The notes under the pieces were generated by a model. The model was not told where the DNA came from. It worked only from the letters and a program-made list of their open reading frames with translations, and did not search any database. From Planctomycetota bacterium (GTDB lineage Bacteria; Planctomycetota; JAJSAM01; JAJVHW01), in NCBI GenBank assembly GCA_021414065.1, contig JAIOPE010000081.1:51027-115026 (forward strand): DNA of 64,000 nucleotides. Direction: 5' to 3'. The translations under genes and the position numbers were made by a program. Position 1 is the first letter of the stretch. Every line of letters begins with the position of its first letter. This document shows, in pieces, positions 2,114 to 5,217 of the stretch.

Positions 2114-3427
2114 TCACCGCGCGCGGAACCGCACCTCGCGCCGCTTCTTCCCCTCCATCACGAACGCCTTCACCTTCTGGCCGCGGACGCACGTCTGCTC
2201 GAGGTACGAGAGGAAGCCGGTCTCGTCCATGCGCTTCGTCTCGTCGTCCACCTTCACGATGATGTCGCCGACCTTGAGCCCGTCGCGGCCGGCCTCGCTC
2301 TGGGGGCCTACGAAGCGGACCTTCAACGCCAGCGCATCGGCGGGGATCTTCAGCTTCGTCCGGGCGTTGTCGTCGAGGTCGTCGCAGCGGAACTGAGCTC
2401 GCATGTAGCCCGTGGACTCGCGCCACGAGACGTCGTTCGTGCGCCAGTCGCGATCGAGGTGGAGCGAGAGCTTCTCCGGCTTCCCGTCGCGCGTGACCTG
2501 GAACGGAACGTCGCACGGGACCTTCGTGTGGTGGAGCACCCACTGCACGTCAGCGATCGACAGGATGGGCTGGCCGGCGGCAGTAGTGATGTCGTCGCCG
2601 TCCCTGAACCCGGCCTTCTCCGCGGCGGAGCCCTTCTTCACCGTGGTGACCTTCGCGCGACTGTCGAGGTCCATCGTGAGACCGACGACGTCGGGCATCG
2701 GGTACGGGCGGAAGAGCTCGTCCGGCAGCTTCCCGTTCTTCCCGCGGACCTCGTCGCGGACGGCGTCCCACGTGAAGTGGCAGTGGACGCAGCCCTTCGC
2801 CGGCTCGTCCGGGTTCTCCGAGAACCGCGAGCGCACGGCCGGATAGTCGTCCACCGCCGGATACGAGGGCCGGGTTCCCTTCTTCCCCGCGAGCGCCGCC
2901 TTGTTCGCGGGGAACACGGCGTCGAGTTCGAGGGCGCCCTCCATCGCGGCGCAGAGGCCGGGGATCGACGACTTGTCCCACTTCTCGGTCGGCGTGCCGT
3001 CGCGCGAGGCGTAGCGGCCGTAGATCGTGCCGTCGGCGTTCATGAAGAACACCGCCCAGGAGAGGTCCCAGTCGAACTGGTACAATGAGAGATCCGCATC
3101 GCGCATCCGCACGATGCGGACGCAGACGAATCGCTCCATCAGCTTCTGGAGCTTGGGATCACCTCGACGCGCAACCTGCGCGTCCATTTCCTTTGCGGAT
3201 GTTCAAGGCACTCAACGGAAGACGATCATGAGCGGGCGGCCCGTGCGCTTCGCCACGGCGAAGCCCTCGGCCGCGTCGTCGTAGATCCAGTCGCCGACGA
3301 GTCCCATGTCGTTGAGCGAGAGCTGGAGTTCGCGCTTCACGTCGTCCTTGGCGGCGGCGACGGACCCCGCGCCGGTTGCCGCGGCCACGCCGAGGAGAAA
3401 GCCCAGGAGCCACGCGGTCTTCTTCAT
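2114..3427 (-). CDS. Trx-fold/PDZ selenoprotein with UxxU motif (two in-frame UGA)
   Basis: Read as one frame, this gene gives 437 residues with two UGA codons at residues 72 and 75 (genomic 3212-3214 and 3203-3205), making U-V-P-U where thioredoxin-fold relatives carry CxxC. Residues 1-26 are a signal peptide (MKKTAWLLGFLLGVAAATGA...). The Trx-like domain (about 30-170) runs through both UGAs without any frame change. A CVHCH motif at residues 213-217 resembles a heme c or metal site. Two PDZ domains follow (about 249-330 and 355-435). A hairpin with a GG-containing loop begins 18 nt after the second UGA (separate entry). I recall NCBI naming a Trx7/PDZ (seleno)protein family, which fits. 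The alternative is a pseudogene broken by a stop at each active-site position, which is much less likely. A periplasmic or extracytoplasmic redox role is inferred. Confidence 0.9.
3166..3184 (-). promoter_or_regulatory. Candidate bacterial SECIS hairpin
   Basis: In the mRNA the sequence GACGCGC-AGGUU-GCGCGUC folds into a perfect 7-bp stem with a 5-nt loop containing GGU. It lies inside the coding region, 18 nt after the second UGA; the loop GG is about 26 nt from that UGA and about 35 nt from the first. Bacterial SECIS elements are short coding-region hairpins just downstream of the Sec codon with a G-rich apical loop read by SelB, so spacing and loop both fit. One hairpin would have to serve both UGAs. 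Confidence 0.8.
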
Positions 3428-3582: not shown

Positions 3583-4431
3583 ATGCCCGCGACGCCGCTC
3601 CAGCTCGAGTGCGATTCCCGCCTCTCCCAAGCGACCGAAGCGATGCACGCCCGCCGCTTCGCCGAAGCGGAGGCGTCGCTGCTCCTCGCACAGCGCGCCG
3701 CCGCCGCGAGTGGCGCCGACGACCCACGCAATGCCGTCGTCCTCCATCACCTCGGGCTCCTCCGCGGCGGGCAGCAGCGGTTCGCCGAGGCGATCACGTT
3801 CCTGCGCGACGCGATCGCGGCCTGGGAGACGTCGCTCGGGAAGGACGACCCGCACGTCTGCGCCAGCCTGAACGCGCTCGGCCACCTCCACGCAATGGTC
3901 GGCGAACCCGAGCAGGCCCTCGACCCGTTCCGTCGCTGCCTCGGCGTGTGGGAGCGCGTGCGCGGCCCGGCGCACCAGGTCGTCGCGACGTGCCTCCACA
4001 ATCTCGCGACGCAACTCGCCGCCGCGAAGCGCCACGAGGAGGCGATCCCCCTCTTCGAGCGCGCGATCCGGATCGACGAGGAGCACCACGGGCCCGACGC
4101 CCCCGAAATCGCCGACACCCTCGAAGCCTACGCCGCGTCGATGGCCGCCCTCGGCCGCGAGGCCGTCGCGATGTCGCTCCTCGGCCGCGCCCACGCCATC
4201 CGCCGCGCCGCCGGACTCGCCGACGACGGCTCCCCGGGGATGCCCCCTGCCGGCGAGGGCGGGTGCTGCGGCGGGAACGGGTCGTGCGGCGGCGCCAAGA
4301 GCGGCGGCGGGGACTGCAAGGGCGACGGGAGTTGCGGGAGCGGCAATCACGATCACGGACACGATCACGGACACGATCACGGACACGGACACGGTCACAG
4401 TCACGAGCACGGCTCCGGCCACGGACACTGA
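3583..4431 (+). CDS. TPR protein with Cys/Gly- and His-rich metal-binding tail
   Basis: A 282-residue protein. Residues about 1-205 form kinesin-light-chain-like tetratricopeptide repeats (phrases such as AVVLHHLGLLRGGQQRFAEA and NALGHLHAMVGEPEQALDPF), a protein-interaction scaffold. The last 60 residues change character: a Cys/Gly stretch (GGCCGGNGSCGG, DCKGDGSCGSG) followed by alternating His-Asp/Gly pairs, which is typical of Ni/Zn/Co-binding tails. The tail is encoded by a 12-bp tandem repeat (separate entry). No signal peptide is seen, so it is probably cytoplasmic. The stop is 6 nt from the start of the Thg1-like gene, so the two are likely co-transcribed. A metal-storage or sensing role is only an inference. 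Confidence 0.8.
   Translation: MPATPLQLECDSRLSQATEAMHARRFAEAEASLLLAQRAAAASGADDPRNAVVLHHLGLLRGGQQRFAEAITFLRDAIAAWETSLGKDDPHVCASLNALGHLHAMVGEPEQALDPFRRCLGVWERVRGPAHQVVATCLHNLATQLAAAKRHEEAIPLFERAIRIDEEHHGPDAPEIADTLEAYAASMAALGREAVAMSLLGRAHAIRRAAGLADDGSPGMPPAGEGGCCGGNGSCGGAKSGGGDCKGDGSCGSGNHDHGHDHGHDHGHGHGHSHEHGSGHGH
4351..4386 (+). repeat. 12-bp tandem repeat encoding DHGH units
   Basis: Three exact copies of GATCACGGACAC lie head to tail, followed by degenerate units (GGACACGGTCACAG). They encode the Asp-His-Gly-His run in the tail of the TPR protein. Copy number is likely to vary between strains by slippage. Confidence 0.85.
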
Positions 4432-4437
4432 CCCGCG

Positions 4438-5217
4438 ATGAAGTTCGACGAACTCGACGTGCGGATGCGCGTCTTCGAGACCGCGCATGACCACTGCGTG
4501 CTGCCGGGCATCCACATCGTCTGCCGCCTCGACGGGCACGGCTTCACGCGGCTCACGCGGGAGACGCATCCCTTCGAGGCGCCGTTCGACGTCCGCTTCC
4601 GCGACCTGATGGTCGGCACGGTCCGCGCGCTGATGGACGCCAACTCGTCGATCGTCTACGGGTACACCGAGAGCGACGAGATCTCCGTCCTCTTCCGCCG
4701 CGACGCCGACGACTTCGGGCGGAAGGAGCGCAAGCTCAACTCCATCCTCGCCGCCGAGGCGAGCGCCGCGTTCACGCTCGCGCTTGGCGCGGCCGCGACC
4801 TTCGACTGCCGCGTCTGCCAACTGCCGACCGCGGACCTCGTCCGCGACTACTTCCGATGGCGCCAGGAAGACGCGCACCGCAACGCGCTGAGCAGTCACT
4901 GCTACTGGATCCAGCGGAAGGAAGGCGCGTCGGTGAAGGACGCGACGGCCCGCCTCATGGGCATGACGACCGCGCAGAAGAACGAGTTCCTCTTCCAGCG
5001 AGGCGTCAACTACGACACCGTCCCGTCGTGGCAGAAGCGCGGCGTCGGCGTCGTCCGCGAGACCTACGAGATCGAGGGCCGCGACCCGCGCACCGGCGCG
5101 ACGTCGAAGGCCACCCGCCGCCGCCTCCGCGTCATCGAGGATTCCACACATAGATGTCGGTGGCGCTGTGGACGCCGGTGCCGTCGTCGATCATCTGCGT
5201 CAGCGTCGGCAGGTTGA
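4438..5217 (+). CDS. tRNA-His guanylyltransferase (Thg1)-like protein
   Basis: A 259-residue member of the Thg1/Thg1-like family, which adds nucleotides to the 5' end of tRNA in the 3'-to-5' direction. Visible landmarks are RLDGHGFTRLT near the N-terminus (first metal-binding Asp), YTESDEIS (second acidic motif), and HRNALSSHCYW, which matches the position of the family's HINNLYN motif. Bacterial members usually repair tRNA 5' ends rather than add G-1. The last about 29 residues (after RVIEDST) are Arg/Cys-rich, unlike the family, and are antisense to a short minus-strand reading frame at 5132-5269, so the native C-terminus may have been replaced by neighbouring DNA. The gene is likely co-transcribed with the upstream TPR gene. 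Confidence 0.85.
   Translation: MKFDELDVRMRVFETAHDHCVLPGIHIVCRLDGHGFTRLTRETHPFEAPFDVRFRDLMVGTVRALMDANSSIVYGYTESDEISVLFRRDADDFGRKERKLNSILAAEASAAFTLALGAAATFDCRVCQLPTADLVRDYFRWRQEDAHRNALSSHCYWIQRKEGASVKDATARLMGMTTAQKNEFLFQRGVNYDTVPSWQKRGVGVVRETYEIEGRDPRTGATSKATRRRLRVIEDSTHRCRWRCGRRCRRRSSASASAG

What the first reader, a model, noticed from the sequence alone, without database searches (positions are those of the whole stretch)
2114..3427. Trx-fold/PDZ selenoprotein with two UGA codons as U-x-x-U
The same reading frame spans both UGA codons with no frame shift, giving Trx-like coding sequence on both sides. Both stops fall precisely at the two redox Cys positions of the CxxC motif. A 7-bp hairpin with a GGU loop starts 18 nt downstream of the second UGA, which matches bacterial SECIS geometry. 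UxxU diselenide motifs are known in the SelL family (established knowledge), and I recall a named Trx7/PDZ (seleno)protein family. The CxxCH motif between the Trx and PDZ domains adds a possible heme or metal site.
Basis: partly seen in the sequence, partly recalled or inferred. Interest (0 to 1): 0.95.

Follow-up and report, generated by a model that had tools for sequence, protein, structure and literature searches.

The report
Double-selenocysteine thioredoxin with tandem RNA hairpins
This bacterial gene carries two in-frame UGA stop codons exactly at the two redox positions of a thioredoxin-like protein, both predicted to be read as selenocysteine, and across its relatives an extra predicted RNA hairpin comes and goes with the first UGA and likely helps it to be decoded.

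Summary
The gene falls in NCBIfam NF041199, "Trx7/PDZ domain-containing (seleno)protein", and its genome holds selA, selB, selC and selD. The literature I could search lists this family with one selenocysteine (CxxU). Among 150 members from Planctomycetota I count UxxU 66, CxxU 32, CxxC 52, UxxC 0; 74 of 75 genomes with a UGA form hold SelA and/or SelB (16 of 44 with Cys only). Sec is thus very likely at both sites. The new part is RNA. A predicted hairpin 18 nt after the second UGA with a G[G/U] loop (the SECIS) is in 59 of 66 UxxU and 27 of 32 CxxU mRNAs. A second one, squeezed between the second UGA and the SECIS, is in 58 of 66 UxxU but 2 of 32 CxxU, far above synonymous-codon controls, and follows the first UGA in 9.7 of 12 independent comparisons on a tree (opposite in 0.1). 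Its loop mostly lacks the SelB-type signature, so I favour a spacer that brings the one SECIS within reach of the first UGA. In the window gene this hairpin is weak (3 bp). No experiment supports this yet. New variant of a known kind.

The parts
2114..3427 (-). Complete gene, 437 codons plus TGA stop: signal-peptide-like N-terminus (by eye), Trx fold, linker with C-x-H-C-H, two PDZ domains
   Evidence: translation; NF041199 369.3 bits; Pfam Thioredoxin_7 and PDZ; AlphaFold2 mean pLDDT 90.5
3212..3214 (-). UGA1, codon 72, predicted Sec, first position of UxxU
   Evidence: Cys or UGA at this position in 150 of 150 members
3203..3205 (-). UGA2, codon 75, predicted Sec, second position of UxxU
3166..3184 (-). 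HP2: predicted SECIS hairpin, 7 bp + AGGUU (or 8 bp + GGU), base 18 nt after UGA2 and 27 nt after UGA1
   Evidence: same register in 59 of 66 UxxU and 27 of 32 CxxU relatives against 2 of 52 CxxC
3189..3199 (-). HP1 in the window gene: weak predicted 3-bp hairpin UCC-GCAAA-GGA between UGA2 and HP2 (4-7 bp in 56 of the 58 UxxU members that have it)
   Evidence: tied to UGA1 across relatives
2900..3301 (-). Thioredoxin fold, residues 43-176
2777..2791 (-). C213-V-H215-C216-H217: CxxCH-type motif, possible c-type heme or metal site (untested)
   Evidence: C213, H215, C216, H217 identical in 150 of 150 members
2426..2689 (-). PDZ domain 1, about residues 247-334
   Evidence: Pfam PDZ_2 253-323; HtrA-family PDZ matches
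2117..2401 (-). PDZ domain 2, residues 343-437

Best explanation
The gene holds two in-frame UGA codons at the two redox positions of a predicted thioredoxin-fold/PDZ protein, both predicted to be decoded as selenocysteine (U-x-x-U) by the SelA/B/C/D system whose genes this genome carries, with the predicted hairpin 18 nt after the second UGA as the likely SelB-binding SECIS for both codons. In most UxxU relatives a second predicted hairpin (HP1) fills the gap between UGA2 and that SECIS (HP2); it is inferred to act as a spacer. When UGA1 is in the A site, HP1 starts 9-13 nt downstream, about where the ribosome would meet it, and folding it away cuts the single strand between UGA1 and HP2 from a median of 27 to a median of 13 nt, close to the 11 nt given for the E. 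coli SECIS, so that SelB on HP2 would reach UGA1. When the ribosome moves on to UGA2, HP1 would be unwound and HP2 would lie about 18 nt ahead, as in CxxU genes. The protein would be exported and use its Sec pair in thiol/selenol-disulfide redox chemistry, with the PDZ domains binding partners; this function is inferred from domains only.
For: Frame and UGA positions. Family. selC 73.2, selB 304.5, selA 488.9, selD 382.1 bits, each over cut-off. Of 150 members, UxxU 66, CxxU 32, CxxC 52, UxxC 0; no in-frame UGA elsewhere in the aligned part of any of the 150. SelA and/or SelB in 74 of 75 genomes with a UGA form (59 both over cut-off, 9 SelA only, 4 SelB only, 2 SelB plus a SelA fragment) against 16 of 44 with Cys only, Fisher p 7e-15. 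HP2 in the minimum-energy fold of 48 nt: UxxU 59/66 (100 synonymous redraws: mean 12.6, max 22), CxxU 27/32 (8.0, max 13), CxxC 2/52 (5.7, max 11); HP1: UxxU 58/66 (14.1, max 22), CxxU 2/32 (4.0, max 9), CxxC 9/52 (4.6, max 10). Independent pairs on a careful tree of the 98 Sec forms: 12 supported pairs that differ at the first position; HP1 goes the same way in 9.7, opposite in 0.1, no difference in 2.1; sign test median p 0.002; the control with HP2 gives median p 1. Covariation on the gapless UxxU alignment: 78.1% of cells paired against at most 44.4% when slid; score 0.261 against 0.155 shuffled and at most 0.151 slid. Loop signature G[G/U]: HP2 59/59 (UxxU) and 27/27 (CxxU), HP1 7/58. HP2 of the window gene meets the constraints quoted from PMC13188914 for both UGAs (loop 26 and 35 nt away, limits 16-37; -12.4 kcal/mol). 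The 11-nt figure for E. coli: PMC8659212, passage.
Against: The window gene's own HP1 is weak, 3 bp, and its 48-nt stretch is not strikingly stable against shuffles (z -1.77). 8 of 66 UxxU genes lack HP1 in the predicted fold. By a laxer direct-stem count, HP1-like stems of 5 bp or more occur in 49/66 UxxU, 10/32 CxxU and 4/52 CxxC. Outside the set, one UxxU (L200) has both hairpins, a divergent UxxU (L259) has neither in the usual register, and 1 of 4 CxxU genes among 28 further loci has both. HP2 alone is already within the published 16-37 nt of both UGAs, so HP1 need not be required. The set used to test HP1 is the one in which it was noticed. RNAalifold on all 66 UxxU rows recovers only the inner 3 pairs of HP2. 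Shuffle control for the count of further pair types is weaker (18 of 500). No selenium, RNA-probing or translation data exist here; the genome is a draft (87.95% complete by the tool).
Confidence: 0.6

Rival explanations
1. HP1 is a second, separate SECIS: each UGA has its own SelB-binding hairpin (HP1 for UGA1, HP2 for UGA2).
For: HP1 tracks UGA1; its base lies 9-13 nt and its loop 13-17 nt after UGA1, near the 11 nt given for the E. coli upper hairpin; [quoted passage not shown]
Against: Only 7 of 58 HP1 loops have the G[G/U] signature against 59 of 59 HP2 loops in UxxU mRNAs, so one SelB would have to accept two unlike loops; the G often comes with the codon of Cys78, which 140 of 150 members keep; only 36 of 58 HP1 loops fall within 16-37 nt of UGA1.
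Confidence: 0.2
2. HP1 is a brake: it slows the ribosome between the two Sec codons so that SelB on HP2 can be reloaded with Sec-tRNA, rather than setting distance.
For: HP1 lies in the stretch between UGA2 and HP2 and occurs with two UGAs, hardly with one; loops vary while a stem is kept.
Against: Nothing here separates it from the spacer model; HP1 stems are short (3-7 bp).
Confidence: 0.2
3. HP1 has no function: the association with UGA1 is a by-product of protein sequence, GC content or shared ancestry, and HP2 alone serves both UGAs.
For: HP2 is within 16-37 nt of both UGAs; the window gene has a weak HP1 and 8 of 66 UxxU have none.
Against: Synonymous redraws keep the protein and pooled codon usage and give 14.1 HP1 on average, 22 at most, against 58 observed; 12 independent tree comparisons.
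Confidence: 0.1
4. The gene is a pseudogene or sequencing artefact with two nonsense changes.
For: It comes from a draft assembly; public gene calls of the nearest relatives start after UGA2 (P0003, P0004).
Against: 66 UxxU and 32 CxxU genes in 75 genomes, with no in-frame UGA elsewhere in the aligned part, and Sec machinery in 74 of the 75; hairpins beyond what the protein requires.
Confidence: 0.02

Closest known systems
NF041199 Trx7/PDZ domain-containing (seleno)protein (GOS 'putative secreted serine protease MucD' selenoprotein family)
   Same: Same family by NCBI model, over cut-off; redox motif with Sec at the second position; Trx plus PDZ. PMC2398784 (passages) reports 2 Sec sequences with a CxxU motif and a figure of a predicted SECIS for one; PMC9402790 (passages) CxxC/U; PMC9312934 (passages) CxxU; PMC13188914 (passages incl. 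table rows) CxxU, 1 Sec. That the MucD family of the GOS papers is NF041199 is inferred from the review table's reference and the shared motif and PDZ label.
   Different: Two Sec in UxxU, not tabulated for this family in those passages; the UGA1-linked hairpin HP1 is not mentioned in the passages I saw.
SelL and other UxxU selenoproteins (Prx-like UxxU; NF041115 metal-binding UxxU; FmdB)
   Same: UxxU motif, hence two UGAs 9 nt apart (PMC13188914 table rows; PMC2398784). That SelL forms a diselenide is recalled and from a reference title.
   Different: Different families: here Thioredoxin_7 + PDZ, no Prx domain. Whether those genes have an HP1-like hairpin was not tested.
E. coli fdhF SECIS / bSECIS consensus
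   Same: HP2 meets the consensus.
   Different: Base 18 nt instead of 11 nt after UGA2, serves (by inference) two UGAs, preceded by HP1.
Trx-fold domains 3f9u (C-terminal domain of an exported cytochrome c biogenesis-related protein), 1sen, AGR2/AGR3
   Different: Sec pair, C-x-H-C-H linker and tandem PDZ domains.

Membership tests
NF041199 trx7_PDZ_seleno | NCBI model score over curated cut-off (300 bits), full length | tested here: met
   369.3 bits, positions 2-389 of 390
NF041199 trx7_PDZ_seleno | CxxC/Sec motif in Trx7 domain | tested here: met
   U72-V-P-U75 aligns with the motif in 150 of 150 members
NF041199 trx7_PDZ_seleno | CxxU with one Sec, as tabulated in PMC13188914 (a description, not part of the model) | tested here: not met
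   UxxU, two UGAs here and in 66 of 150; a variant inside the family
Bacterial SECIS (bSECIS consensus, PMC13188914) | loop 3-9 nt, stem 4-16 bp, G in first two loop positions, 16-37 nt from UGA, <= -7.5 kcal/mol | tested here: met
   HP2 of the window gene: 8 bp, loop GGU, 26 nt from UGA2 and 35 nt from UGA1, -12.4 kcal/mol
Bacterial SECIS (bSECIS consensus) applied to HP1 | G[G/U] loop and 16-37 nt from UGA1 | tested here: not met
   7 of 58 loops with signature; 36 of 58 in range; window gene loop GCAAA, 15 nt
Sec-decoding genome | selA, selB, selC, selD | tested here: met
   all four over cut-off
MucD/DegP serine protease | trypsin-like protease domain | tested here: not met
   no trypsin family among the 6 Pfam matches, only PDZ, Thioredoxin_7 and two weak ones; NCBIfam and PDB matches to DegP/HtrA cover the PDZ part
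SelL (Prx-like UxxU) | Prx-like domain | tested here: not met
   no AhpC-TSA, Redoxin or SelP_N match in Pfam
c-type cytochrome | CxxCH | tested here: met
   C213-V-H-C216-H217; 150 of 150 members
c-type cytochrome | covalent heme and cytochrome fold | not testable with these tools
   needs heme staining or spectroscopy; residues 177-238 were not folded or searched on their own

The most novel reading that the evidence does not exclude
Bacteria use a dedicated second cis element, a compact spacer hairpin between the second UGA and the SECIS, to let one SelB-SECIS complex recode two UGA codons nine bases apart; it was gained or lost with the first UGA about a dozen times in Planctomycetota.
Probability: 0.5. 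Interest if true: 0.82.

Novelty: new variant of a known kind. Interest (0 to 1): 0.7.

Why it matters
How bacteria, whose SECIS sits right behind the UGA, decode two closely spaced UGAs was not described in what I could search. This family offers a natural experiment: CxxC, CxxU and UxxU genes in one phylum, with the first UGA changing state at least 12 times on supported branches and a predicted hairpin mostly changing with it. It gives a directly testable rule for double-Sec decoding and, if true, a design element for making proteins with Sec pairs. It also shows that database entries of the nearest relatives begin after UGA2 and miss the redox motif, and that the form most common in my Planctomycetota sample is absent from the published motif table.

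Tried and rejected
Reading on the + strand: rejected, that frame is the antisense. Rfam over the window: 0 matches at gathering score, no tRNA; so no ready SECIS model helped. RNAalifold on 66 UxxU rows recovered 3 inner HP2 pairs only; I relied instead on per-sequence folds with synonymous controls and a named-structure count. Neighbours: of 184 flanking same-strand ORFs, 83 were drawn at random by a script and 68 of these passed on (15 left out by hand, among them ORFs that overlap family genes and near duplicates); no family recurred beyond PQQ/BamB-like propellers in 5 of 68 (lists capped at 25 families); in the window both flanking genes lie on the other strand, so context gave no function. 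Replication outside the set: 28 named genome-contig loci gave 27 with a readable motif, 23 CxxC (HP1 in 1, HP2 in 2) and 4 CxxU, but no UxxU; two class-wide searches and one on the own class brought no genome absent from the first sample, only extra loci such as L200 and L259. Rows dropped or not reached: 2 of 152 alignments shorter than about 150 residues; one search lists matches only down to about 268 bits, and those below were not fetched. PDB fold search: the Foldseek rows shown are nearly all HtrA/PDZ proteins; no separate fold for residues 177-238 was sought. The wish to test another phylum failed for lack of a handle. Literature on the double-Sec form of this family or a tandem hairpin: the searches showed none in listings, nor did the passages read; subscription papers, preprints and supplements were not covered, and figures (e.g. 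Fig. 6D of PMC2398784) could not be seen.

Full report

Is it a selenoprotein gene? The own genome (draft, 87.95% complete by the tool) has selC 73.2 bits, selB 304.5, selA 488.9 and selD 382.1, each over its cut-off. Of 75 genomes with a UGA form, 59 have SelA and SelB over cut-off, 9 SelA only, 4 SelB only, 2 SelB with a SelA fragment, and 1 neither (G211, 77% complete); of 44 with Cys only, 28 have neither (Fisher p 7e-15). SelA alone is not proof of the trait (PMC4607533, passage), so the count is of SelA and/or SelB. The nearest database relatives (P0003 95%, P0004 79% identical) begin after UGA2, as expected if gene callers stop at UGA.

The SECIS. HP2, 18 nt after UGA2, meets the bacterial SECIS constraints quoted in PMC13188914 (section 5 passage) for both UGAs: loop 26 nt from UGA2, 35 nt from UGA1, loop GGU, 8 bp, -12.4 kcal/mol. 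Taken alone, the window's 48 nt are only moderately more stable than shuffles (z -1.77). Across relatives HP2 is in the minimum-energy fold of 59 of 66 UxxU and 27 of 32 CxxU mRNAs but 2 of 52 CxxC; redrawing synonymous codons from the same pooled usage (100 runs) gives 12.6 (max 22), 8.0 (max 13) and 5.7 (max 11). The 86 HP2 loops found (59 and 27) each carry G followed by G or U near their start. The RNA therefore appears selected beyond the protein.

The second hairpin. A scan of loop positions against redraws showed one more main excess, in UxxU only: a hairpin starting 0-4 nt after UGA2 with its loop 4-8 nt after it, ending 0-9 nt before HP2 (example AAGGAC-UGCAA-GUCCUU). It is in the fold of 58 of 66 UxxU (redraws 14.1, max 22), 2 of 32 CxxU (4.0, max 9) and 9 of 52 CxxC (4.6, max 10). 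A laxer direct count of stems of 5 bp or more gives 49/66, 10/32 and 4/52. On a careful tree of the 98 Sec forms, built without the motif and hairpin columns, the first position changes 16 times (12 forced by supported branches); in 12 independent pairs HP1 goes with UGA1 in 9.7, against it in 0.1, and does not differ in 2.1 (median p 0.002); HP2, as control, does not follow (2.0 same, 0.6 opposite, 9.5 no difference; median p 1). The quick tree of all 150 agrees (15 pairs: 11.7 same, 0.2 opposite). On the gapless UxxU alignment, 78.1% of cells pair against at most 44.4% when slid, with changes on both sides at 11 of 13 pairs (6-9 when slid).

How it may work. In CxxU genes HP2 alone serves UGA2. 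In UxxU genes UGA1 lies 9 nt further up; the linear distance to the base of HP2 is a median of 27 nt. With HP1 folded, the single strand between UGA1 and HP2 is a median of 13 nt (range 9-21; 16 in the window gene by its coordinates), near the 11 nt given for the E. coli SECIS (PMC8659212, passage). HP1's loop carries the G[G/U] signature in only 7 of 58 cases, so I prefer a spacer to a second SelB site; a brake between two Sec insertions is a further alternative. These three are not separated by my data. That UxxC was not seen (0 of 150) fits an HP2 placed for UGA2 first, with UGA1 added later; this order is inferred.

Against. The window gene's own HP1 is only 3 bp, 8 of 66 UxxU lack HP1, a divergent UxxU (L259) lacks both in the usual register, and 1 of 4 further CxxU genes has both. 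The rule was found and tested on one set; outside it only one UxxU (L200) supports it. No wet data exist.

Known or new. The family as a selenoprotein is known: 2 Sec sequences with CxxU in PMC2398784 (passages), CxxC/U in PMC9402790 (passages), CxxU in PMC9312934 (passages) and CxxU with one Sec in PMC13188914 (passages incl. table rows). UxxU is known in other families. I found neither UxxU in this family nor a UGA1-linked hairpin in the searches. I rate it a new variant of a known kind, with the hairpin rule as the part worth testing.

Noticed in passing
L018 (G000:C27:4739-5683): The genome's own selD carries one in-frame TGA (GAGUACK context), which suggests a Sec-containing selenophosphate synthetase.
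   Followed up: partly
window 2777-2791 (-): C-x-H-C-H is identical in 150 of 150 family members; heme c or metal site untested.
   Followed up: partly
window 3583-4431 (+): TPR protein, divergent neighbour, with a Cys-rich stretch and a long His/Asp/Gly tail (HDHGHDHGH...), looks metal-binding.
   Followed up: no
window 4438-5217 (+): Thg1-like tRNA-His guanylyltransferase gene directly after the TPR gene.
   Followed up: no
L118, L121, L128, L058: Neighbouring family copies in G115 (two UxxU), G279 (two UxxU), G288 (UxxU with CxxC) and G044 (UxxU with CxxU); G279 has four UxxU members in the set.
   Followed up: no
L259 (G179): Divergent UxxU member without HP1 and HP2 in the usual register; how it would be decoded is unexplained.
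   Followed up: no
L195 (Verrucomicrobia MAG): CxxU gene that nevertheless folds both hairpins; may be a recent loss of UGA1 or chance.
   Followed up: no
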